DNA of 64,000 nucleotides from Cyprinodon diabolis (taxonomy: Eukaryota; Chordata; Actinopteri; Cyprinodontiformes; Cyprinodontidae): the NCBI GenBank assembly GCA_030533445.1, contig CM060064.1, positions 20,915,626 through 20,979,625 of the forward strand. Reading direction: 5' to 3'. Made by a program: the position numbers and the translations under genes. Under the pieces are notes generated by a model. That model saw nothing but the letters and a program-made list of their open reading frames with translations. It searched no databases and was not told where the DNA came from. Positions within the stretch are counted from its first letter, which is position 1. Every line of letters starts with the position of its first letter. Below are positions 6,026-52,317 of this stretch, piece after piece.

Positions 6026-6115
6026 ATGTAGGGTTGAAACAATTAATCCGATTAATCATGATTAATCGATTATTGAAATAATCGCCAACCAATTTACTAA
6101 TCGATTAATCGTTAA
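6026..6115. repeat. TTAATCGATTA-rich palindromic repeat remnant
   Basis: The segment contains several overlapping copies of attaatc/gattaat (aattaatccgattaatcatg, attaatcgattattg, aatcgattaatcg), giving dense self-complementarity. Similar strings are common in short fish DNA transposons beginning TAGGGYTG. One such end, tagggttgaaac, is at 6027. The matching far end was not found. Confidence 0.45.
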
Positions 6116-7852
6116 CTGAAGTTTAGAGACTCTAAACCATGCCTTTATCTGACAGAGCAACCCACTCAGAGCATTAGACTGTAATAAATAAACATTTTGC
6201 AGAAAAAAAAAACATTTTGTTCTTCCAATATGCTCTATCCAGAATTCCTCAAGTGGAAAAGTCTTAGCTTCACCTGGTTTAATTTTGTAAAAAATATTCT
6301 TTGGTGAACCCTTGGCTATGCGATTATAACTGCTACACGCAGCTACTGTTACCAAACTTAAAGACTGCTTTTAGTTCCCACTTTTCCCAGTTGAACAGCA
6401 GATGGTTTGAGCATACAGAATGGGATCTTTGTCTATTGTTTCTTTGCACAATCTCTCTAGATTGTTTAGAGTCCTGGGTTGTCCTATGGGGCTATTTCTG
6501 AATTTCAGCCCACATGTTTTCTGCCCATTTCAGATTGATGCTTCTGTGTCTGGTTAACTACTTTTCTTTCAATTCAGTAATTTCCTCACAGTGGTTTTCC
6601 TGTTGAGATGCATTTTCATTCTTGTAGGCAAAGCAACAGCATTTATTTTTTATGTCTTGCTATTTAAATGTTTTAAATCTAAAGGGGTTCTAATAGCATT
6701 TCCTATCCTCCACTATGCTTAACAGTTGTCCGTCATACTTTGTTTGACATTAGACCTTCCTTAAGTAGTTATTGAGTTTTGAAGGTTTGTTTACATCCCT
6801 TTAAATTCTCTGTAATGCGTGTAGTTCTAAGATAAATATGGGTCCTCATCCAGAATTGTTTATCAGTTGTTTTTTTTCTCACCTTTTTATTTTTGTTCTG
6901 ACCAAATATGCAATTTTAGGCAAGTCACTGTTTTCTGATTGATAAGATTAAACACTCACTAGGCTTACCTAAATGGTGTCTTCTTTTATCTTTTACAATT
7001 TGAAGAGCCTCTAATAAATATCATAGATACTCTAAGCAACCTTAACAAATAAGCAACAGTCATAGTGCATTATATGCTTTAATGTTCAGTGAACTCCAAA
7101 CCGAGAAAGGGAGGAAAAGTGAAAAGGGTGTGGTTTTGACAATCGGAAGTCAACGACCCATGATTACTGATTAGAGTCCTCCTTACCTGCATAGCATGAA
7201 AGATCATATGAGAAGCAGGTTTGTCTCAGAACTGCCTGAAAACTAGAATCTTACCTAAGTTTAGAGAGGAGGGAATAATTTGTTGTTTATTTTTCCCATG
7301 ACATACCAGTTATATACACTGAGGACCATTAAGTATTTGAGAAAGTAATCTGTTTGTAAATATAGAGATGTGTTAATTTATTATAGTCAAAAACCTGTTT
7401 ACCATTTCACTATTTTACAGTATCTTCTGTAGTGTGCATATTCTAACTATTTATCGTTAAAAATTACAACAAAGCAGAAAAATTAGGTACAATTTCTTTC
7501 TAACAATTTAAACCAATGCTGATCGATTCATTTGTAGTTCAGTCAAGTTGCAGTGGGGCTTTGCAGGTCACTGTTTTTGCAATACAATCACAGTTAAACA
7601 AAACACAATTTTCAGATCACAGAGGCACCTAATTTTGGTCATATTACCTAAAATGAGTAATAATACACAGACCTTCTCACCCCGGCCCCTTAGGTGGCAG
7701 TAATACGTTTAAAGCACGTTTGCTGACTCACTTTAGGGAAGAGAGAATTGCAGCTTGTGCGCAGATCCATGCATGTGTAGTAAGCCTTTTTATCACATAA
7801 CAGCTACATTGAAGTCCTGCAACAACAGAGTCTGGACAAGCAAGCTTTCAGA
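6116..7852. other. AT-rich non-coding stretch
   Basis: Nothing recognisable: no long frame, no paired termini, no RNA gene. Confidence 0.5.
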
Positions 7853-10200: not shown

Positions 10201-12136
10201 TAATTTGTTGAGAAGATGTGCCAAGACAAGAGATCGACAGATACAAGTTTTCTTTAGGGCCGATCTTGAAAGCAACTATTTTAACATTAGTCTAACCAAT
10301 CCCCGATATGTGGGAGCACATTTTTAAAGCTGATGTTTCGTTTTCTTTCTCTATTTGCATGATACAAATGACACCATGGTAACAAATTACAGAAACATTT
10401 ATTAACAAATCAAACAAAACATTGACAGTAGATAGCAAATGAACGAAGGAGCAATGCACTTCATATGATCTCAAGTCATGGCTGCTGAATACACAAATGA
10501 ATCAGTGGATGCATGCACATATATCGGCCAATGGCGATAAAAAATTATAATATCAGACAATGTATTTGTCTATCTCTATAAAATACATCATACTTTCCCT
10601 GGTAAACCGTGCCTTATCCTACAAGGTAATACAATGAGACACACAGAAAAAGTGTAGCTGCAGACCTTTTATGGTCTAACTAAAACATCTTTCTTATCTT
10701 TACTCTGGGTAATTTGCAGCAGATCTGTGGTAAACTGACCATTCAGCTGCTGTCCCACTGACAACTTTACAATGATAGCTTTTACCTATGCAAACACTTC
10801 CATTAGCAATGGAGCTAAGGTCACCTTTATAAATGGTAAAATAAACACGCTGAACATCCCAAAGCTCAGTCTTCAACAGTGACTTCTTGCATCTCTATGT
10901 AAATGAGTCGATATAGGAAAACCCAGGTAACTAGATATACCTTACCTAATATGTCAGCAGCATAGATAATATCTAAAAATAATCATTAAATGTTGAGTTG
11001 AAACCATCCAATCTGACTAATTGGATGTATCAATTATTATTCACATATGTCCCCAAAACAAGCCTATTTTATATAGTTGCCTAACTTCTTATGTTTCAGC
11101 AATTTTAGTTAGTCTTAGCACAGATACAGTATTTCCTCCAGCAGCAGAACCTAGTGAGTGAAACTGAGCTCATGAGCTGACTTCATCTTTTCCAGGTGAT
11201 CACAGCTAATAAATAAAATAAGAACTTCAATTATTATGTGTGTCTTTTATTGATTGCAAACATCAATGGGTAGATATATCACTTTTGGATGATCTTGTAC
11301 CCTATATGGGCTTGTCAGTCTTGCAAATGCAATTTCCTACGAAAACTGTTACATTATCAGCTAGTACACCTCTACTATGAGCAGAAAACTCACTAAGACA
11401 AATCAGGACATGAACGTCTGATCACAATTTACATCATATTCTATGTTCTTATTTAGTCCCAGGTGTAGAATACCACCTGAGTGGACGTTCTTTGCCTGGA
11501 GACTGCAGATCATTCCCTCTTATTGGTTAATTTTTTTCTCGTAACGAAAAAAAAAAAGATAGTAATGCACTGCATTCAGAAAGAAAACTCAGAAAGCAAC
11601 TCATTTACCAGCAATGTCCGATAGATAAACACCAACATATTATAATTTATTTCATAAACTATTTTACATAAAAGTAAAGCTCTCAAAACTAAAATAATCA
11701 AATTGAACATATTTTAGTTCATGTTTAGGTAGTACACATATTTCAGTATTTAAATGTCGTTTAGTGTGGATGTGCTAATTTGAGCATCATTAGTAGCTAA
11801 CAATTAACCGGTTTAAAAGTTTTTAGGAAGGAAAATCATTCCTTTCTTTTCTCTTAAGTAGCATGACCCTACTACACAAACAGAAAAATGTTTGATATTC
11901 TTTAAAGTAATCCAACTTGACCAATACCTCAAAGAGCCTCAGGAATAGAGGAGGAATCAGATTGCACCTTGATAGACACACTCCCCTTTGACCGGACATA
12001 TTAAGCTGTTTTAATATTGTATCATTAGGAACACCAAATAAATGTGTTTCTTATAATGCTAGACATGAAGTCACAAATACACACAGAAGTTTTTTCTCTG
12101 TCAGATTCAACTGTTCATTTCTTCTTTCCCCTCTAG
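10201..12136. other. AT-rich non-coding stretch (putative paqr7 intron)
   Basis: No gene seen. The last 40 bases are pyrimidine-rich (ttcatttcttctttcccctctag) and end in the splice acceptor at 12135-12136 directly before the paqr7 coding exon. Confidence 0.5.
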
Positions 12137-12149
12137 TCTCCTGGTTGCG

Positions 12150-13208
12150 ATGGCCACAGTAGTGATGGAGCAGATTGGCCGGCTTTTTATCAACGCCCAG
12201 CAGCTCCGACAGATCCCTCAGCTGCTTGAGTCAGCCTTTCCAACACTGCCTTGCACTGTGAAGATTTCTGATGTCCCAAGGGTGTTCCGCGAGCGTCACA
12301 TCCTCACCGGCTACAGGCAGACGGATCAAAGCTGGCGGTACTACTTCCTCACCCTCTTCCAGAGGCACAACGAGACCCTCAATGTCTGGACCCACCTTCT
12401 GGCAGCGCTTATTATCCTCGTGAAGTGCCAGGAGATCTCAGAAACGGTGGATTTTCTGCGTGATCCCCATGCCCAGCCCCTCTTCATTGTCCTCCTGGCA
12501 GCCTTCACCTACCTCTCCTTCAGTGCTCTTGCCCACCTCCTCTCTGCTAAGTCAGAGCTCTCATACTACACCTTCTACTTCCTCGACTATGTCGGGGTGT
12601 CTGTCTACCAATATGGCAGTGCTCTGGCTCACTACTACTACGCCATAGAGAAGGAGTGGCACAGTTCAGTGCAGGGTTTCTTTCTGCACACTGCTGCATT
12701 TTTGGCTTGGCTCACTTGCTTCGGGTGCTGCTACGGCAAATACGCAAGGCATGATCTGCCCAAGTTTGCCCACAAGCTCCTCCAAGTGGTGCCCTCTGCC
12801 TTGGCTTACTGCTTAGACATCAGCCCGGTGGTCCACCGTATCTACAGCTGCTACTGGGAGGGCTGCTCTGACCCAATAGTGTTGTACCATGTCTACCATG
12901 TGATCTTCTTTTTAATCAGCGCCTATTTCTTTTGCTGTCCACACCCTGAGAGTCTGCTCGCTGGGAAGTGTGACTTCTTTGGGCAGGGCCACCAGATCTT
13001 CCATGTGCTGGTGGTGGTGTGCACCCTGACGCAGATTGAAGCCCTGCGAACTGACTTCACAGAGCGCCGCCCTCTCTATGAGCGCCTCCACGGAGACCTC
13101 GCCCATGACGCAGTGGCGCTTTTCATCTTTACCACCTGCTGCTGCGCTCTCACCGCGTTTTACGTGCGTAACCGTGTGCGTGCCTCCCTCTATGAGAAGA
13201 AGGAGTAA
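12150..13208 (+). CDS. paqr7: Membrane progestin receptor alpha (PAQR7)
   Basis: A 352-codon intact single-exon gene of the PAQR family, a seven-helix membrane receptor that binds progestins at the cell surface; in fish, membrane progestin receptor alpha is known to mediate steroid-induced oocyte maturation. The start MATVVMEQIGRLFIN and end matching the usual family length support this ATG, which follows a splice acceptor (ccctctag at 12129-12136) by 13 bases. Visible family features: RHNETLNVWTHL at residues 72-83, a metal-site His129 (SALAHLL) and Asp146 (FLDYVG) spaced 17 apart, and His281/His285 in GQGHQIFH, the same spacing as in adiponectin receptors. Several hydrophobic helices follow residue 80. 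It resembles the alpha (PAQR7) more than the beta (PAQR8) type. The CDS is clearly more GC-rich than its flanks, as expected for a real exon in AT-rich DNA. No disruption seen. Confidence 0.96.
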   Translation: MATVVMEQIGRLFINAQQLRQIPQLLESAFPTLPCTVKISDVPRVFRERHILTGYRQTDQSWRYYFLTLFQRHNETLNVWTHLLAALIILVKCQEISETVDFLRDPHAQPLFIVLLAAFTYLSFSALAHLLSAKSELSYYTFYFLDYVGVSVYQYGSALAHYYYAIEKEWHSSVQGFFLHTAAFLAWLTCFGCCYGKYARHDLPKFAHKLLQVVPSALAYCLDISPVVHRIYSCYWEGCSDPIVLYHVYHVIFFLISAYFFCCPHPESLLAGKCDFFGQGHQIFHVLVVVCTLTQIEALRTDFTERRPLYERLHGDLAHDAVALFIFTTCCCALTAFYVRNRVRASLYEKKE

Positions 13209-18368: not shown

Positions 18369-21190
18369 TATTCAATTTTCAATTCAGTTTATTTATATAG
18401 CGCCAAATTCACAACACATGTCATCTCAAGGCACTTTACAGTTCAACCAGATCATACAGTCAAATTGATACAAAGTTTTCTATCTAAGGAAAACCGGTTG
18501 ATTGCATTGACTCATTGACTCAAATACAATCCCTCACACTAAGCATGCTTGTAGCGACAGTGGAGAGGAAAAACTCCCTTTTAACAGGAAGAAACCTCCA
18601 GCAGAACCAGGCTCAGTGTGAGCGGCCATCTGCCGCGGCCGACTGGGGTTCAAGGAGACAGAAGCAGAGATACAAAAAGCAGCTGTAAAAGGCGGCCCCG
18701 TCCAGGAAACACACAGCCAGGCAGACGAGCTCCAAGGCAGCTCCCATGCCAGAGGATGAAGAGAGCACATCCACCCAGCCACGGCCAGAGAAACAGGACC
18801 ACACTGGAAAACAGGCCGATCTCCAACATCTACAAACAAGGGTGTTGATGGAAGCAGCACAGCTGATGTTTCTTTCCTGGGTGACATCACAGCCAAACAG
18901 GAACAGACGAGGCAAAGCTACTCTGAGGAAAAGCAGAGAGAGCAGAAGGTTAGAGATTGAACAAACAGATTCTGCAGAATAGGAGAACAGAGAGAGAATG
19001 AAGCAGAATGATGAAATGGGGGTCCCTATGTCCTCCAGCAGTCTAAGCCTATAGCAGCATAACTTTAAAGACAGCTCCAGATAACCTGAGCCACCCTAAC
19101 TATAAGCTTTATCAAAAAGGAAAGTTTTAAGCCTAGTCTTAAAAGTAGACAGAGTGTCTGCCTCACGGACTAAAACTGGTAGTTGGTTCCACAGGAGAGG
19201 AGCCTGATAACTAAAAGATCTGCTTCCCATTCTACTTTTAGAAATTCTAGGAACCACTAGTAAACCTGCAGATTGAGAGCGAAGTGCTCTGTTAGGAACA
19301 TAAGGAACAATCAGATCTCTGATATAAGATGGAGCTTGGCCATTTAAGGCTTTATATGTGAGAAGGAGGATTTTAAATTCTATTCTTGATTTAACAGGAA
19401 GCCAATAAAGAGAAGTCAGGATAGGAGAGATATGATCTCTCTTTTTAATTTTCATCAGAACTCTGGCTGCAGCATTTTGGATCAGCTGAAGGCTTTTAAC
19501 TACAGTTTGTGGACTTCCTGATAGTAAAGTATTACAATAGTCCAGCCTTGAAGTAACAAATGCATGGACTAGTTTCTCAGCATCACCCCTGGACAGGAGA
19601 TTTCTAATTTTTGCAATGTTCCTCAGATGAAAGAAGGAAATTCTAGAAAACTCTTTGATATGGGATTTAAATGACAGGTCCTGATCAAAAATAACACCAA
19701 GATTTTTTACTTTATTATCTGAAATCAGTTTAATCCCATCCAAATGAAGTGACTGGCTAATCAGCTTCTTTTTCAGAGACTCTGGTCCAAAGACTATAAC
19801 TTCTGTTTTGTCTGCATTCAGAAGCAGAAAGTTAAGAGTCATCCAGGTTTTTATGTCTTCAAGACATGCCTGTAATCTATGTAATGGGTTAGCTTCATCT
19901 GGATTTATAGACAGATATAGCTGGGTATCATCAGTATAACAGTGGAAATTAATCCCATGCTGTCTAATAACTCTACCAATTGGGAGCATGTATAAAGTAA
20001 AGAGAATTGGTCCTAGCACTGATCCCTGTGGTACTCCACAGGTAACCTTTGAGCGTGTTGAAGATCTATCATTAACATAAACAAACTGAATTCGATCAGA
20101 TAGATAAGATTTAAACCAGTCTAGTGCTGTTCCTTTAATTCCAACAAAATATTCAAGTCTTTCTAAAAGAATATTATGGTCAACTGTATCAAATGCAGCA
20201 CTAAGATCCAACAGGACGAGCACAGATACAAGTCCATTATCTGAGGCCATGAGAATATCATTAGTGACTTTCACCAGAGCTGTTTCAGTGCTATGATGAG
20301 CTCTAAAGCCAGACTGAAACTCTTCAAAAAGTTCATTATGGTGTAAGTGGTCGCAAACCTGTTTGGCAACTACTTTCTCAAGAATTTTGGATAAGAAAGG
20401 AAGATTGGATATAGGTCTATAATTAACCAAGTCATCTGGGTCAAGAGACGGTTTCTTAAGCAGAGGTTTAATTACAGCAACCTTAAAAGCTTTAGGTACA
20501 TATCCCTGTAACAGAGATAGATTAATCACATCTAAAATGGAGGAGGAGATCAAAGGGAATACCTCCTTAAATAACCTGGTTGGAACTGGATCTAACATAC
20601 AAGTTGAAGGCTTAGATGAAGACAATAATTTTGCTAATTCAGAAAGTTCAACTGGATCAAAGCAGTCTAAACCCGGTTCAGATTCCATGACTACCTTAGG
20701 TACAATCGCGGATAGAGGAGTGCTTATGATCTTATTTTTAATAAGATCAATCTTATTTATAAAGAATCCCATAAAATCATTGCTGCTAAGAGCAGGTGGA
20801 ATGGACGGTTCAACAGAGCTTTGGCTCTGGGTGAGTTTGGCAACTGTATTAAAAAGAAATCTAGGATTATTCTTATTCTCCTCTATTAATGAGGAGAAGT
20901 ATGCTGCTCTTGCTTTACAAAGGGTCCTCTTATACAGCAGTAAACTTTTTTTCCAGACTAGGAAGGACTCCCGCAGGCCTGTGGAGCGATATTTTCTCTC
21001 CAGTTTCCTAGCATTTTGCTTCAAAGTACGCAGCTCTGCATTAAACCAAGGAGCAAGCTTTCTATTTTCAACGGTTTTCATTTTCAAGGGAGCTGCGTTG
21101 TCTAAGGCAGTACGCAGAGATTATATTGCTTTTAATCAAGTAACAGTAGGAGTATTTGAAAAACTGGCAAATCAGGTATCTGATTATAAC
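18369..21190 (-). mobile_element. CR1/L2/Rex1-group LINE, 5' truncated
   Basis: A non-LTR retrotransposon of about 2.8 kb on the minus strand. It contains the 3' UTR (18369-19095) ending, on the minus strand, in ggcgctatataaataaactg followed by short AATTG-type repeats, a tail shared by many fish LINEs, and the reverse transcriptase frame. The N-terminal endonuclease domain is absent and the frame is interrupted by stops within about 100 bp upstream of 21087, so the copy is 5' truncated and dead. Two further 3' pieces of this group lie at 31245 and 39178 on the plus strand. Confidence 0.88.
19096..21087 (-). pseudogene. LINE reverse transcriptase (N-terminally truncated)
   Basis: An open frame of 663 codons encoding the connector, reverse transcriptase and C-terminal domains of a CR1/L2/Rex1-group LINE. 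Visible motifs: ANYRP-type [13 protein letters not shown] (222-234), [13 protein letters not shown] (292-304) with the first catalytic Asp at 294, [10 protein letters not shown] (351-360), and [11 protein letters not shown] (383-393) with the catalytic pair Asp386-Asp387, Thr replacing the more common Ala of YADD. The C-terminus ([29 protein letters not shown]) is typical of the group. There is no natural start: the frame begins at a TTG within the family's coding region and stops lie just upstream. The length of open frame suggests a relatively young copy. Confidence 0.9.
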
Positions 21191-43327: not shown

Positions 43328-43845
43328 GGTATTCTACCATAACTTACAATGATATTCTACAGTCATGGCCAAAAGTTTTGAGAATGATTCAAATGTTAAG
43401 ATTTACAAAGTCTACTGCTTCAGTTTTTATAACGGCAATTTGCATATTGTCCAGAACGTTATAAAGAGTGATCAGCGTAACAGCAATTAATTGCAAAGTC
43501 AATATTTCCCTAGAAAATGAACTTTATCCCCCAAAACACATTTCAACGTCATTGCAGCCCTGTCCTAAAAGGAACAGCTAACATCGTTTCAGTGATTGCT
43601 CCATTAACACAGGTGTGGGTGGTGATGAGGACAGGGCTGGCACTGCATGAAAAGTGAGATTTTCGTCCCCGTAAACTCCTGTAGATCTCCCTGATTTTCG
43701 TCAGTTTCCGACAATTTGCAACCCGCGCTTGTCCGCGTTTGTCGTGCCACAAATTGTCGGAAACGGACTCTGACGTATGTGGAGAGCGATCAGCTGTACT
43801 AATGGCCCTAATTAGCATATGAATGCAGCAAACCCGCGCGGCTGG

Positions 43846-44012
43846 CCAGGTCTGGCTTGAATAACCTACTCAGTATTGGCTAAAACCACTACTCAAACAA
43901 GTAAAATCGCTCGTGATTGGCAGCAAAACCACACGTGGCCACGCCAGGCTTTAATTTTCTTACTGAGTATTGGACGGAACCACTTCTTTTTAAACAAGTA
44001 AAGTCCCTCGTG
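43846..44012 (+). repeat. Diverged tandem duplication inside the CACTA element
   Basis: Two units of about 80 bp share the texts cagtattggctaaaaccact / gagtattggacggaaccact and aacaagtaaaatcgctcgtg / aacaagtaaagtccctcgtg. Confidence 0.6.
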
Positions 44013-44017
44013 ATTGG

Positions 44018-44118
44018 TTGGCATATATATATATATATTTACATATAAATTTACATAAATATATATATATATTTATTTATTCATATATTTATTCATTCAT
44101 ATATTTATTCATTCATAT
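44018..44118. repeat. AT-rich simple repeat
   Basis: Runs of ATAT followed by imperfect units of tcatatatttattcat. Confidence 0.85.
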
Positions 44119-44417
44119 GCTGTGTATTTATGTTATCCTACACTACTACACAATTATTAGGCTACCATCAAGGACATGAATGAATTTATACAGGAAATGA
44201 ACATTTGCCAGGAAGCTGTTTATGCAAAGAAAGAGCTTTATTAAAACAAACACAACTATATACAACGCGTATCCAAACAGATGCGTATCTAAAAATTACA
44301 AGTCAGTGAATGGTCCGTTTACTTCCTCGGGGTTGGAGGTAACTGGCAGCATTCCCTCCGAGGCAGGTCCGATGTGCAGACGCCTACTGTGCGTGGCTCT
44401 GTACTTCGGCATCGCTT

Positions 44418-45221
44418 CTAATCGGGACTGCAGCTTAACACAGAGTTCAGTGAGATTCGGCCTACGAAATGGCGGCGAGCAGATTGCTTGGCAGCCTCTG
44501 CACGCAACGTGTTCTCAGGCTGCGTATATCTGAAGCTCCTGCGTACCGTCTCAAAATACGTCTTACAGGCAGCTGGAAAACAATTAAATGAGATTTGTAT
44601 GAATAAAAAATCAAACGCAAGTCACAGTAACAAGGAAGGAGAAAACATTAAAACAAGTCACTTACACACAATGTCGTCTTTATCAACATCGTGCAAATCT
44701 GGACTTGCTGATATGGCTCCGAGCAAATAGGAGGTCTGTGAAAACAAAATGTACAGCTATGATCGGTATCTATCCGTATCCATTTCCTTTTACCATTCTT
44801 CTTACCCTTGCTCCGGTTCATAGCGCCTGCAATTAGTCTCCGAGTTGTGAAGACGGCGTACTGCTTCCTGTGAATCACAAAAAATACACTTTAATAAAGC
44901 TTGTTCTTGCAAGGCTACTATTAGCCGTAGCTTTAGGCTAGGCTGCTATTAGCCATAGCTTTAGGCTAGGCTGCTATTAGCCGTAGCTAAGGCTAGGCTG
45001 CTTTTAGCTTAGCAGGCAGTAATCGAACATATATTTACCGCTAGCATCTCTTCTTTGAGTTCGTCTTGTTCGACTGCAGAGTCGCCATCAAGTCCAAGAG
45101 GAGTTTCACCCCGAAATCCCACATACTCCTCTCCAGACCGCCTGCACAAAGCAAAGCATACATCCTCCGCTGTGGCTCCAGACCGCTCCGCTCTGAGTTT
45201 CTTGGAGATCGTAGAGAGCAT
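44418..45221 (-). pseudogene. Possible multi-exon gene carried by the CACTA element
   Basis: On the minus strand four segments have splice consensus: 45221-45039 (ATG start; MLSTISKKLRAERS, ending ATGCTAGCG|gtaaat), 44867-44806 (ttcacag| ... gcaagg|gtaaga), 44735-44666 (tttcacag| ... ttgtgt|gtaagt) and 44572-44418 (gttttccag| ... TAG). Segments 3 and 4 join in a shared frame giving LLGAISASPDLHDVDKDDIV and then CKTYFETVRRSFRYTQPEN, a coding-looking sequence of a kind I associate with unnamed fish proteins, though I cannot name the family. Segments 1-2 do not join 3-4 in this frame without single-base differences, so the copy may be frameshifted or the model wrong. It is enclosed by the element ends, so it would move with them. 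Confidence 0.35.
44913..45014 (+). repeat. 28-bp tandem repeat, ~3.5 units
   Basis: Units of ggctgctattagccgtagct plus ttaggcta, starting at 44913, 44941 and 44969 with a partial fourth. It lies in the presumed intron between segments 1 and 2 of the minus-strand gene. Confidence 0.9.
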
Positions 45222-45472
45222 GCGCGAGATGAACCAGGGTTTCCGCGGATCATTAAAAATAATTACAATTCATTCATTTTTTTTTAATCAAGGCCTTAAT
45301 TGGCACTAAAATTATTTAAATATGTTTATCGAAGTATTTATAATTCTTTCATAAAAAATGCTTATAAAAACAATTTCGTCAGATATATTATATCGCTATT
45401 AATTTGCGTGGAACTGATCATAAAGCCGTATGTTCGGAAAGGAAGCTCCAGGCGGAGAAAAAGCTAGAGGAT

Positions 45473-45483
45473 ATATATATATG

Positions 45484-45514
<31 letters not shown>
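45473..45514. repeat. (AT)n(GT)n microsatellite
   Basis: AT repeats followed by about 12 GT units. Confidence 0.9.
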
Positions 45515-47446
45515 TTACATACATACAGGAGTCATGGAACTGTGCTTACAGGTCCTTCATATTTCATGTACACTAATAACTTGTGTACATGGTTCTTGTT
45601 GATGGCATTAAAATAATTTCTAATAGCATTAAAATAGCATTAAATTAGAGTCACTCATTCCTGTATGAACCCTGTGAGCGCTTTATTTAATATGACATAT
45701 TAAAAAAATCCCACCATCATCCAGCATATGTTCAGTTTCTGCCCAAATGTATATATATATTTTTGTAGATTTTTGTAACGGGGATAAGGATAATTCAAAA
45801 CTGCTTTTTTTGAATGAACTTGTTCTCTACTCCCAAACTCAGCATCTCTTTTCATTCCTGTAATAAGAAGTTTCTTTTGAATGGATTTGATTAAAGTTTA
45901 AGTCCCTCGGTATAAAATAAATATTTTGATGGAGATGAGAAATCTGCTTCCTCGTTGGTGAATAACCAATAGTTTGGATCCAATCATTTAAATAAACGGT
46001 GTTAGTTTTTTTTTATATATATAAGAATTGTGCTATAATTTCTTGTCACCGATCTGTTGCTGCTATATTTTAATTTGAAACCGGAATTTGTCGATGTTCT
46101 TTTTCCTGTTTGGTGCGAATGCAATTGCGGATCTTGACCTGGCCGGACCTTATGACCACAGTGTACCAATCTTCTGATGGCTACTTCCAACAGGATAATG
46201 CGCCATGTTATAAAGTGAATCATCTCAGACTCATTTCTTGAAACTTTTCCACTTAAGTAATTGTGAATTGAGCATATTGACAGACAACATTTTATTTTTT
46301 CTCTTAAATGCAATTGTTTTTTAAATAATTACTGCTCTAAACGTATTGCTCTGTCAGCTAAAGATCTGTTTTGGTCTCTATACTTTAATTAAATAAATCA
46401 ATTCAAGCTAAAATGTAAGAGGTTATACTGAGCCTGATCTCTTTGTATCAGAGATTTTCTTACCTTTTAGAAAAATGTCACTTGGGTAAAACTCCCCCTG
46501 CAACCCTGATTTGCATTTGTATAGCCCACAGCATTTTCATTTACATGTTAAAGCCTCCCCTAGAATTCCATGGGGGGAGGCATGGGGGGAACACTGCCTA
46601 AGAAAGTCCACGTCAATTTCTGACAATTTACGGGAGTTTTCGGCGAAGCCTGCAAATTGCCGTAAACTGCCGCTAACCTGAAGTTCCACGACAATCTACA
46701 GTACCGCATATTGACGAAAATCCCACTTTTCATGCAGTGTGGAGATCAATCAGTCATGATTAAGTAAGAATGACACCACTGGACACTTTAAAAAGATGCT
46801 GGTGCTATGCATCATTGTTTCTCTTCTGTGAACCATGGTTATCTCTAAAGAAACAAATGCAGTCATCATTGCACTGCACAAAAATGGCCTAAGAGGCACT
46901 GGCGTGTTCAGGGAGTGGCCTTGGGGCCACCCCAAGTGCCACCCCAAAATTTTAAAATATGATTGGCTATATGCCCAGTCAGAGGCGGGCCACTGCACTG
47001 AACGTAAAATGCGCTCTTGTTTTGAGTTGAAGTTGAAGAAGGCGCGAAGAAGACGTTGATGAACCTACAGGTGAATACATTCTCCAGTCTATCAGAAAAC
47101 AGCACGTCTCTGGCGCGACGTTGTGAAATATGTGAGTAGCCTACATTTTACTACACTTACTGTGCCTGTAGTTAGAAGCTGTAATGGTAATAAGCTAAAC
47201 ATGTACCCTGTCTTGTTTTATTTGTTTTATTGTAATTGGCACACGGCTGTCGTCTCCTCATCTCGTTAGAAAACACTGTTTTGACTGTCAACGATGCTAA
47301 CGCTAACATTTAGCTACTCTGTACTGAGTAAAACTGTTATATTAGACCCCTATAACATCATTTACATTTCATTTTCATTCTTGTGTGTGCACAATTATTT
47401 ATTGTACTACATATAAGAATGTCGTGCATTATGGGACTATTACAGT

Positions 47447-50224
47447 ATGAAAAGAAGTCAGAATATTAAAGATTTCTTCGCAAGGAAGAGATCTAAGATA
47501 GAGCCAGAGCAGGGGCAGAGCAGTCAGTCACAGGATGAGAGCCAGCCTTCAGCCTCAGCTGTACACATTGGTATGTGAAATCCTGATAGTTCAAGTTTGT
47601 TCTCATGTTTAAACTTACTAATTTGGTTTGATTGTACCAAACCTCTTAGTTTACTTAGGAAAGGCTGATTGTATCATCATTCTAATCACAGCTTATGTAT
47701 TATTATAGAGTCACCCTCAACATCACATACACATCAGGGTATGTATGAATTTACCTTCTTTAAAACATTATGTGCATTGATTCGAACTGAGATATTTCAA
47801 ATATACTACAGTGTCATATACTGTCATTAAGTGTGTAGACAATTTTTTAAACAATACTGGTGTGAAAAGCCTAAATGTGACAATTTGAATTATAATGAAC
47901 TGATAAAATCTCTATATATTGCTACAGGTGTGTCCAGTGCTGAGGTTCTTGCAGGCCATCCACAGGGGGATAGTGGTGTGGGAGCCTCTTATAGCCAGCC
48001 GGGACCTATTGGTATGTCTTAACAATTCATTTTTCATATGAAGTATAATATACTTAGTCACATTTTCATTCTAATGACAACCTATGTGTTATTGCAGAAT
48101 CAGGTGAAGATTCTTGTGATGAGGGCCCTTCACCATCACACATGCAGCATAGTATGTATGCTTTACCTTTTTTTAAATTAACATCACAGTATCTGCTTTT
48201 ATTTAGATCAGGATACCAATAATACTGGTGTTTAAAATCTAAATGTGGCAAATTGAAAAATATTTAAATTAATAAAATCTCTGTATTGCTACAGGTGTGT
48301 CCAGGGCTGATGTTCTTGTAGGCCATCCACAGGGGGATAGTGGTGTGGGAGCCTCTTATAGCCGGCCCGGACCTATTGGTATGTCTTAACAATTCATTTA
48401 AGTTAGTGACTTATGTGACACTAAAAGGTCCTGATTCCCATACATTTGTCACTTACAGATATTTCACAGTCAAGAGCAACAGGACCCACTCAACCCCAGT
48501 TAAAGCTGTATCCAAAAACCATGCAATGGGAGAAGAGGAGGTCGTTCAATCCATCCTGGTACAACAGGTTTTCATGGCTTGAGTACTCAATAATGAAAGA
48601 CTCCACGTACTGCTATGCATGCAGGCAGTTCTCTTTGCCTAGCACGTCAGAATCTGTGTTCACCTCAGAATCCGGCTTTTCACATTGGAAAAAGGCAATG
48701 TATAAAGATGCTGGCTTTAAGTTGCATGAAAAATCAGATTCTTACATTACTGCCATGTTAGCTTGGAGTGAACACAAGAGGGCTGCACTTACAGATGCTT
48801 CTGTATTAAACATGATCAACAAAGAGTACAAAAAGAAGGTCGAAGAGAAACTGTTGCAGATGTATTGCTTTTGACAGCCACACAAAATATGGCACAAAAG
48901 GGCACTGTGAGTCTGAGCAGTCTGACAACAAAGGGAATTTCTTAGAAATTCTTGAAATGATTGCTAAACACAATCCTGTGGTAGCCAAAAACATGAAAGC
49001 AAAAGGCAATGCCAAATACATAAGCAATACCATACAAAATGAAATTCTGCAGTGCTTAGCCAGTATGGTGCAGGATTCCATTGTGAAAGAAGTGAAAGAG
49101 AGTGAGGTATTCTCCATCATCGCTGATGAAACCAAAGATCTCCAAAAAAAGGAACAGCTGTCATTAGTACTTCGATATTACTATAATGGGGCTGTGCATG
49201 AAAGCTTCCTTGAATTCCAGCACGCACAAAATCTAGATGCTAAGGGGCTTAGTGACATGATCATCAAGTCTTTGAAAGCTATGGCCTTCAGTACAAATCA
49301 AACCTTGTTGGACAAGGTTATGATGGCGCCTCAGTAATGAGTGGTAAACATTCGGGTGTGGCAGCCAGAATCAAGACAGAGGCTAAAACTTCGTTTTATG
49401 TCCACTGTAATGCACACTGTCTAAACCTGGTCTTGGTTGACACTGTGAAGTCAGTTCCAGAGGCCGATTGTTTCTTTTCGCTACTTAAGAAGATCTATGT
49501 ATACATGTCAGGCTCTTATGTGCACCAGAAATGGCTTACAGTCCAGAAAGAGATGTATGGTGGCACACCTAGAGAGTTACAAAGATTAAGTGACACAAGA
49601 TGGGCATGTAGAGCATTAGCTTGCAGGAATCTGATGGATAGATTACCAGCTGTGTTGTGTGTTCTTCAAAATATAAGTGCAGAAAATCACAGAGACAGGT
49701 CCATTGATGCTAGAGGTCTGCTTGCACAGATTGACCTCACATTCATAGGCCTCCTTGCAACCTTCCGAAAAGTTTTCGGTGACACAAAGCTGCTTTCTGA
49801 CCTGTTGCAGTCACCCTCAGTTGATTTAGCTATGGCAGCAGACATGGTGGAGTCACTTCTTGATACTTTTCAAGAGTATAGGACTGAGGCATTTAGTGAT
49901 AAACTGTGGAATGATATAGTAGAGACAGCCAAACACTGCAACATAGCTGTTGAGAATGCTGAGAATAAAAGAGCACACAAAGTCAGCACCAAACTTTGTG
50001 GGTCGTATGTGACATGCACTATAGGCCTGCACAACAGTAATGCAGACAAAGATGCATTCAGGCAGAAACTATTCTACCCCATCCTTGACACCTTAGTTGC
50101 TGAAATAGAAAGAAGGTTCTCAAAAATGAACTGTTCAGTAATTAAAGGTATACAGGCCTTAAATCCTAAAAGCAGTACATTCCTTAAAGATGATCAGGTC
50201 TTTGACTTTGGAAAAATATATTAG
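47447..50224 (+). pseudogene. hAT transposase (TTF zinc finger, ZMYM1-like), decayed
   Basis: Exons with consensus sites and consistent phase: 47447-47570 (MKRSQNIKDFFARKRSK), 47709-47738, 47928-48011, 48098-48151, 48295-48378, and a main exon from 48459. The main exon encodes a TTF-type finger (SWLEYSIMKDSTYCYACRQF), then EVFSIIADETKD (first catalytic Asp), QGYDGASVMSGKHSGVA (second Asp), and HCNAHCLNLVL. Frame breaks occur at about 48858, 48901 and 49290-49310. The frame stops at 50224; text after it (gaggaagatcttactcatga) fits the family for a few residues, then jumps to terminal sequence, so the C-terminal dimerisation domain has been deleted. It cannot make a working transposase. Confidence 0.88.
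47655..48395 (+). repeat. Tandem duplication of two exons in the hAT gene
   Basis: 47655-48035 and 48050-48395 are tandem copies. Each holds an ESxxxSxS-type exon (47709-47738, 48098-48151) and an 84-base exon (47928-48011, 48295-48378) with the introns between them. The 84-base exons share nearly all bases, including ggccatccacagggggatag and tggtgtgggagcctcttata, and all exon lengths keep the reading phase. Confidence 0.85.
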
Positions 50225-50826
50225 TGTAATGAGGAAGATCTTACTCATGAGCTTCACCAGGCTAGAGGGTGTGTATTTTCTTGTGTGCATGTGTGTGTGC
50301 ATATGTGAGTGTATATGTCTGTGCGCAGGCGGTCCTGCTCATACTTCATGCCACCCCTGCATAAGTCAGTGCCCCACTGGTGCCACCCCTATCAAAAATG
50401 TCTGGACACGCCCCTGCTAAGAGGAAAGAGAATCGCAGCTAGAAAGATTGCACCTCAGTCAACAATCTATTGCATCATCAAGAACTTCAAGGAGAGAGGT
50501 TCCATTGTTGCCAAAAAGGCTCCAGGGCGCCCAAGAAAGACCAGCAAGCACCAGGACCGTGTCTTAAAAGTGTTTCAGCTGTGGGGTCAGGCTACCAGCA
50601 GTGCAGAGCTTGCTCAGGAATGGCAGCAGGCAGGTGTGAATGCATCTGCACGCACTGTGAGGCGAAGACTCTTGGAGCAAGGCCTGGTCTCACGGAGGGC
50701 AGCAAAGAAGCCACTTCTCTCCAGGAAAAACATCAGAGACGGACTGATATTCTGCAAAAGGTACAGGGAGTGGACTGCTGAAGACTGGGGTAAAGTAATT
50801 TTCTCTGATGAATACCGTTTCCGATT

Positions 50827-51371
50827 TGTTCTGGCTCCTGTCAGTTTTATTAGTAGCACCCTTGTGGTGTTTTTATGTTACTGCAGTTCTAATGAGCAGG
50901 CTTTTCCAGTGTTCATACATACAGCACTTCATGCTACACCACAGGTTAAGTTGCCTAAATCTTGGAGCGGAACCAACAGTGAGTATTTGCATAGTCGGTT
51001 CTTGTAGTTGTTTCTTACCTATCTGTATTATTTTAGACTGTTTTAGGGACCTCTTTTTTAAGTTTAAACCCTGCTAACAATGCTAACGCTAATCGCGAAG
51101 CTAATCGCTAGCCTGAGGCTAGTCAGGATGCTAATTTCAGTTAGTTTTTGAATTTCTTATTTGTTGCATTGTTGAATGTGCTGCATTTTTCTTTACAATT
51201 CTGTCTTATGTGTTCAATAGATTGGAACTGTTAAATCTAAATTGTAACACACTGTATATTTCATTTGTATTGCAGTTTTACAAAAAATAACTGAGAAGAT
51301 TCAGTAAAGCAGCCTTAATCACAGCTACTGGCTCTCTCGTTTGTTCGCTATCTGTCAGCCAGGACAGAATA
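50827..51371. mobile_element. Candidate solo LTR inserted in Tc1
   Basis: A 545-bp segment interrupts the Tc1 catalytic domain with a 5-bp target duplication CGATT (50822-50826, 51372-51376). Its ends are TGTTCT and AGAATA, that is TG...CA-type termini with one change in the last dinucleotide. A 5-bp duplication fits an LTR retroelement. No internal region is present, as expected after recombination between two LTRs. Family unknown; strand not determined. Repeated gctaatcgc-like text lies near 51078-51120. Confidence 0.7.
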
Positions 51372-51900
51372 CGATTGTTTGGGACATCTAGAAAACAGCT
51401 TGTTCGGGGAAGATGAGGTGAGAGCTACCACCAGTCTTGTCTCTAGCCAACTGTAAAGCATCCTGAAACCATTCATGTGTGGGGTTGCTTCTCAGCCAAG
51501 GGAGTCGGCTCTCTCACAGTCTTACCTAAAAACACAGCCATGAATAAACAATGGTACCAGAATGTCCTCCGAGAGCAACTTCTCCCAACTGTCCAAGAGC
51601 AGTTTGGTGATGAACAATGCCTTTTCCAGCATGATGGAGCAGCTTGCCATAAAGCAAAGGTGATATCTAACTGGCTCAGGGAACTAAACATAGAGATTTT
51701 GGGTCCGTGGCCTGGAAACTCCGCTGATCTTAATCCCATTGAAAACTTGTGGTCAATCAACAAGAGACGGGTGGACAAACGAAAACCTAGGAATTCTGAC
51801 AAAATGCAAGAATTGATTGTGCAAGAGTCCAGAAGTTGATTGAGAGCATGCCAGGGAGAATTGCAGAGGTCCTGAAGAAGAGGGGTCAACCTTGTAATAA

Positions 51901-52317
51901 ACAGTTTTATTAAATTATAAATAAATAGTTAAATACTGTTTAACCTAAATAGATATTAGATATTACATATAATCAATACAGTTATTTCCAAATTTTAGCT
52001 TGTTTTGATATTTACTTTTTGACTTCAAAATCTATTTATTTATTTAACCCTTGTTCACACACATATATATATTTTTTTCAATATGTATTCTTTTACATGA
52101 TAAATTATTGTTTTTTAAAGATGTTTTTAAAAAATTTTAATTTACAATTTATTTCAGTATTTCAGAACTTATTTATTTATTAAATACAATTCAAGGAATT
52201 GTTGTTTTTTATACCTATATAACACTAACATACATATATAGATATATATCTCTCTATAAATACCTAGAGAGATATAGATATAAATATTTATATTTATTTA
52301 TATATAACTGTATCAAG
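51901..52317. other. AT-rich non-coding stretch
   Basis: Strongly AT-rich, with short alternating AT and a palindromic patch (atatatctctctataaatac followed by ctagagagatatagat near 52240-52280). The missing Tc1 3' inverted repeat was looked for here and not found. Confidence 0.5.

What the first reader, a model, noticed from the sequence alone, without database searches (positions are those of the whole stretch)
43360..51900. One Tc1 transposon broken by three insertions of three different classes, each with its own target duplication
Seen directly: a Tc1 copy is split at 43640, 46896 and 50826. Each gap holds an element with paired ends and an exact duplication of the Tc1 target: TGG (3 bp, CACTA type), CTAAGAGG (8 bp, hAT type) and CGATT (5 bp, LTR type). 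Removing each makes the Tc1 text continuous. Established: these sizes are the signatures of the three superfamilies. Inference: this spot tolerated, or attracted, repeated insertion, and it gives a relative dating in which Tc1 predates all three.
Basis: partly seen in the sequence, partly recalled or inferred. Interest (0 to 1): 0.75.

Follow-up and report, generated by a model that had tools for sequence, protein, structure and literature searches.

The report
Fish transposon split by three others
An old, dead jumping gene in a fish genome was struck by three other mobile elements of different kinds, each leaving its own scar; this is ordinary genome archaeology, except that one of the three carries a broken relative of a little-known vertebrate gene.

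Summary
A Tc1-type copy (43360 to about 51889) is split by three inserts, each flanked by an exact duplication: TGG (43641-46739), CTAAGAGG (46897-50416), CGATT (50827-51371). With the inserts and one copy of each duplication left out, the Tc1 text aligns without a gap over 377 residues (89%) to P0002, an uninterrupted relative, across all three joints. Six variants with the wrong number of copies at one joint were all worse: slightly at the first joint, strongly at the other two.

Corrections: the Tc1 copy lacks its 3' end. The hAT insert lacks its C-terminal dimerisation part. The third insert is at most a solo LTR, judged by structure only. The CACTA-like insert has CACTG ends and no recognised transposase. 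"Tc1 predates all three" is sound; "attracted insertion" has no support.

A side finding may matter more: the CACTA-like insert carries a decayed, intron-bearing gene related to C14orf93 (DUF4616). One of 36 related fish proteins has a tail matching this insert's own end repeats, suggesting that gene and transposon travel together. The nested structure itself is ordinary.

The parts
43360..43640 (+). Tc1 piece 1: 5' terminal repeat and leader, preceded by TA
   Evidence: 28-bp end found once in the window, 0 expected in shuffles; residues 1-44 of P0002 match 43517-43648 at 84%
43638..43640 (.). target duplication TGG, left copy (right copy 46740-46742)
   Evidence: one copy gives the best match to P0002, by a small margin
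43641..46739 (.). CACTA/EnSpm-like (CMC) insert, 3099 bp, CACTG...CAGTG ends
   Evidence: 27-bp inverted ends, 26/27; no transposase family among the 20 stop-to-stop frames of 60 aa or more that overlap it
43895..44017 (.). subterminal direct repeat of the CMC insert (26 bp at 43895 and at 43992, 92%)
   Evidence: family D13; matched by the C-terminal tail of P0255
44299..45100 (-). decayed intron-bearing C14orf93-like (DUF4616) gene inside the CMC insert; pieces about 45100-45047, 44867-44808, 44735-44670, 44570-44475, 44466-44299
   Evidence: 36 related proteins; tblastn of P0251, P0260, P0247; splice-like flanks; the uppermost piece is weak, E 0.23-3.6
46740..46896 (+). Tc1 piece 2: end of leader and start of transposase; begins with the TGG copy, ends with the CTAAGAGG copy
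   Evidence: P0002 residues 41-96 match 46739-46906 at 79%
46889..46896 (.). target duplication CTAAGAGG, left copy (right copy 50417-50424)
46897..50416 (+). hAT insert, 3520 bp; first 15 bases of its two ends agree at 12
   Evidence: 8-bp duplication and ends; DUF4371 PF14291 E=1.2e-20; 644 relatives at E<=0.001, best 120 listed
48458..50266 (+). hAT transposase remains, frameshifted; C-terminal dimerisation part missing
   Evidence: P0144 residues 212-322, which hold PF05699 (residues 229-295), have no match in the window at E<=0.01
50417..50826 (+). Tc1 piece 3: transposase, open frame
   Evidence: HTH_Tnp_Tc3_2 PF01498 E=4.3e-16; P0002 residues 91-227 at 90%
50822..50826 (.). target duplication CGATT, left copy (right copy 51372-51376)
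50827..51371 (.). presumed solo LTR, 545 bp, ends TGTTCTG...CAGAATA
   Evidence: 5-bp duplication and short imperfect ends only; no TATAA, AATAAA or ATTAAA in it
51372..51889 (+). Tc1 piece 4: catalytic half, two stops and a small frame-changing deletion near 51827, then truncated
   Evidence: DDE_3 PF13358 E=5.7e-10; Sleeping Beauty 5cr4 E=3.4e-23; P0002 residues 225-377 and 386-406

Best explanation
A Tc1-type DNA transposon inserted at a TA and later decayed. Separately, a CACTA/EnSpm-like element, a hAT element and an LTR retroelement each integrated into it by its own enzyme. Filling of the staggered cuts produced the 3-, 8- and 5-bp duplications. The LTR element was later reduced to a solo LTR, presumably by recombination between its two LTRs. 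Shown: the insert boundaries, the duplications, the Tc1 empty sites against an uninterrupted relative, and that hAT and Tc1 carry broken transposase genes. Inferred: the enzyme class of the first and third inserts and the solo-LTR step. No function of the locus as a whole is proposed: it reads as a stack of dead elements.
For: Gapless 377-aa match of the joined text to P0002 across three joints. Six wrong-copy-number controls were all worse. Alignment A1 (query and 13 relatives) shows no insertion or deletion at the hAT and LTR joints. Inverted ends agree at 26/27 for CMC and at 12 of the first 15 bases for hAT. Domain hits for hAT and Tc1. A 2025 paper calls CAC...GTG ends with 3-bp duplications consistent with EnSpm, and 8 bp usual for hAT (PMC12730594, passages seen).
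Against: No transposase was found in the first insert. The third insert ends in TA, not CA, and shows no TATA or polyadenylation signal among the words tested. The first joint is covered by one relative only and the copy-number control there is weak. No orthologous empty site or second copy of any insert could be examined: nine whole-genome requests did not complete.
Confidence: 0.95

Rival explanations
1. Assembly artefact: the inserts are misjoined repeats.
For: Not tested with reads; transposon-rich stretches are hard to assemble.
Against: Exact duplications beside element ends at three joints, and the best fit to P0002 with one copy of each duplication; misassembly would not be expected to make these.
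Confidence: 0.02
2. The spot is an insertion hotspot that attracted the three elements.
For: Three inserts totalling 7.2 kb within 1.35 kb of Tc1 text.
Against: Different element kinds, unrelated target words, joints spread over 556 bp. No genome-wide rate was available for comparison.
Confidence: 0.05
3. The third insert is not a solo LTR but another kind with 5-bp duplications, such as a hAT5-like or other non-autonomous DNA element.
For: No LTR signals found and ends only 7 bp and imperfect; hAT families with 5-bp duplications exist (PMC12730594, passage seen).
Against: A TG start and near-CA end with a 5-bp duplication is the retroelement integrase pattern (recalled knowledge); no longer inverted ends were found in its outer 120 bases.
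Confidence: 0.2

Closest known systems
Tc1/mariner of fishes (relatives named from Xiphophorus, Serrasalmus, salmonids, carp)
   Same: Transposase 89-90% identical to P0001-P0004; HTH and DDE domains; TA before the 5' end
   Different: 3' end missing, broken by stops, a small deletion and three inserts
CACTA/EnSpm (CMC)
   Same: CAC...GTG inverted ends, 3-bp duplication, direct repeats near the left end
   Different: CACTG rather than CACTA end; no transposase recognised; carries a DUF4616-like gene
hAT elements of fishes, often annotated zinc finger MYM-type protein 1-like
   Same: 8-bp duplication, DUF4371, 90% identity to P0121 over 278 residues
   Different: Frameshifts; dimerisation part missing; imperfect ends
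Solo LTRs
   Same: 545 bp, TG start, 5-bp duplication
C14orf93 / RTFC / P19 (DUF4616)
   Same: Five of five fish relatives of the cargo gene scanned pass the PF15394 cut-off
   Different: The window's own joined pieces do not reach PF15394 (0 families); decayed and lying inside a transposon

Membership tests
Tc1/mariner | HTH plus DDE transposase | tested here: met
   PF01498 E=4.3e-16, PF13358 E=5.7e-10
Tc1/mariner | Paired terminal repeats flanked by TA | tested here: not met
   5' end present with TA; 3' end absent from the window. Filed as a truncated copy, by its transposase.
CACTA/EnSpm (CMC) | CAC...GTG ends with 3-bp duplication | tested here: met
   criterion from a PMC12730594 passage
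CACTA/EnSpm (CMC) | CACTA-type DDE transposase | tested here: inconclusive
   No transposase family in 20 of 20 frames of 60 aa or more; a non-autonomous copy may lack it
hAT | 8-bp duplication and hAT-type ends | tested here: met
   end type by recalled knowledge
hAT | hAT transposase with C-terminal dimerisation region | tested here: inconclusive
   DUF4371 part present; PF05699 part present in P0122 and P0144 but without a match here at E<=0.01
Solo LTR | 5-bp duplication and TG...CA ends | tested here: inconclusive
   5 bp met; ends TG...TA
Solo LTR | Identity to the LTR of a full-length element in the same genome | not testable with these tools
   Nine whole-genome requests unanswered; they asked for a Tc1 piece, and no LTR query was sent

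The most novel reading that the evidence does not exclude
A CACTA-like transposon family of bony fishes regularly carries a DUF4616 gene as its second gene (full CACTA elements have two, the second of unknown function: PMC4158355, passage seen). The vertebrate gene C14orf93, linked to thyroid function and microglia attraction and without a known molecular activity, is then either its donor or its domesticated descendant. In support: the gene lies inside an element with inverted ends and a 3-bp duplication. One annotated fish protein (P0255, Alosa sapidissima) has a C-terminal tail that matches this element's end repeats (score 68; maximum 46 among 100 shuffled tails). The relatives look multi-copy in some fishes: 8 of 36 hits are named Fundulus heteroclitus, on 7 different contig lengths, though these may come from more than one assembly.
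Probability: 0.3. Interest if true: 0.6.

Novelty: new member of a known kind. Interest (0 to 1): 0.3.

Why it matters
Nested insertions give a relative order of transposon activity and are common in transposon-rich genomes (recalled knowledge); this one is a clean textbook case. What could matter is the cargo: if fish CACTA-like elements carry a DUF4616 gene, the origin of an uncharacterised human gene becomes testable by comparing fish transposons.

Tried and rejected
A 3' end of Tc1 further downstream (a fourth, larger insert): local alignment gave no match above shuffled controls, and the C-terminal tail of P0002 gave no match better than E=0.23; an insert longer than the remaining 12 kb is not excluded. 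Relatives elsewhere: a Tc1 protein piece in phage records, window 50425-51950 in plasmids, a Tc1 and a hAT protein piece in viral contigs, the CMC and Tc1 end patterns in viral contigs and the CMC end pattern in prokaryote genome contigs: none found. Tc1 piece 3 against solved structures: no match; piece 4 matched Sleeping Beauty. RNA families at gathering score: none in the window. AlphaFold2 model of P0247, a fish DUF4616 protein: mean pLDDT 55.2, too poor for a fold search, which was not made. Papers: C14orf93 with transposon 0, DUF4616 0, C14orf93 with transposable 0; the other listings showed nothing on this locus by title and abstract start. CpG observed/expected is 0.86 in the CMC insert against 0.28 hAT, 0.31 Tc1, 0.42 LTR and 0.37 window, varying widely in 300-base steps. 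This would fit the CMC insert being youngest, but base composition is not a clock, so it is not used as evidence.

Full report
Observation. The sequence was read and measured directly. The Tc1 copy begins at 43360 with a 28-bp end that occurs once in the window, just after a TA. Insert one is 43641-46739 (3099 bp), duplication TGG. Insert two is 46897-50416 (3520 bp), duplication CTAAGAGG. Insert three is 50827-51371 (545 bp), duplication CGATT.

Proof of three insertions. The joined text, with the inserts and one copy of each duplication left out, was compared with P0002, a 438-residue relative from an unnamed source found by protein search (1042 relatives at E<=0.001, best 120 listed). P0002 is open upstream of the usual start, so it also covers the first joint, which lies in the leader. 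The match runs over residues 1-377 with 89% identity and no gap, in one frame, through all three joints. With both copies or no copy of one duplication, 6 of 6 variants were worse. At the first joint this meant a 1-residue gap and a score of 668 or 664 instead of 673, a small difference because three bases do not change the frame. At the second and third joints the match on one side was lost. In alignment A1, 13 relatives show no indel at the second and third joints; 1 of the 13, P0002, reaches the first. Without any joining, the window matches P0002 in five pieces.

What each element is. Tc1: HTH_Tnp_Tc3_2 and DDE_3 domains and a sequence match of piece 4 to the Sleeping Beauty structure 5cr4 (piece 3 had none). 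It is dead: two stops in the coding part, a small frame-changing deletion near 51827 and a missing 3' end. hAT: DUF4371, 90% identity to P0121 over 278 residues, but the part that holds PF05699 in P0144 has no match here at E<=0.01, and the coding sequence is frameshifted. CMC: inverted ends 26/27 with CACTG. All 20 stop-to-stop frames of 60 aa or more that overlap it were scanned with Pfam (4, 10, 6), without a transposase family. Third insert: structure only.

Cargo gene. The minus strand of the CMC insert between about 45100 and 44299 matches a fish protein family: 36 hits, 24 of them named C14orf93 homologue or C14orf93-like, 33 of 36 listing PF15394, 34 named from fishes and 2 unnamed. 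The query was joined by guessed splicing. Its first 67 residues and one middle piece were read in frames that most relatives do not use; later tblastn of relatives against the window gave the pieces listed here. The pieces at 44867 and 44735 directly follow AG, the piece at 44570 follows it two bases on, and GTAAG stands within a few bases behind the pieces ending at 44808 and 44670. This reads as an intron-bearing gene rather than a retrocopy. About 50 residues are missing at 44475 (P0247 residues 235-284). The joined remnant itself does not reach PF15394, while five of five relatives scanned do. P0260 matches the last 60 residues at 97%.

Link of gene and transposon elsewhere. A scan of all 276 fetched proteins against the window pointed to the C-terminal tail of P0255 (Alosa sapidissima), which was then tested on its own. 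It aligns with the CMC left subterminal repeats, outside the gene: 12 of 13 residues at the repeat near 43992 and 9 of 9 at the repeat near 43895. The score was 68; the maximum of 100 shuffled tails against the whole window was 46, and the rest of the window gave 35 and 32. The tail was chosen after the scan, so this is not a blind test. Of the 36 hits only P0255 shows such a match below E=0.1 outside the gene; other listed matches there had E of 0.16 or more. The window's species is not known, so it cannot be excluded that it is itself an Alosa or a close relative.

Interpretation. Tc1 predates all three inserts; none of the three is nested in another, so their order is open. No evidence favours a hotspot. 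Mouse and human work describes C14orf93 as lacking a recognised catalytic or structural domain (PMC10163356 and PMC5322522, passages seen). A transposon link was not found in three searches of the held library, which lacks most subscription journals and preprints.

Verdict. The phenomenon is ordinary. The cargo gene is the part worth a second look.

Noticed in passing
43895-45100: C14orf93-like (DUF4616) gene remnant inside the CACTA-like insert; one fish protein's tail matches the insert's end repeats.
   Followed up: partly
46149-46220: Weak match to other Tc1-type transposases (7 matches, best E=0.072) inside the CMC insert; possibly a second, older Tc1 scrap.
   Followed up: partly
46243-46403 and 6099-6262: 73% inverted match between the right half of the CMC insert and a place 40 kb away; shared repeat of unknown kind.
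   Followed up: no
47911-48032 and 48278-48399: 122-bp direct repeat (94%) inside the hAT insert, an apparent partial duplication.
   Followed up: no
12069-13205: 379-aa open frame with a HlyIII domain (PF03006, E=1.6e-56), a likely host gene of the PAQR kind (name recalled).
   Followed up: no
19099-21120: 674-aa open frame on the minus strand with a reverse transcriptase domain (PF00078, E=9.9e-38), probably a LINE.
   Followed up: no
43641-46739: CpG observed/expected 0.86 over the CMC insert against 0.28-0.42 over its neighbours, with wide local variation.
   Followed up: partly
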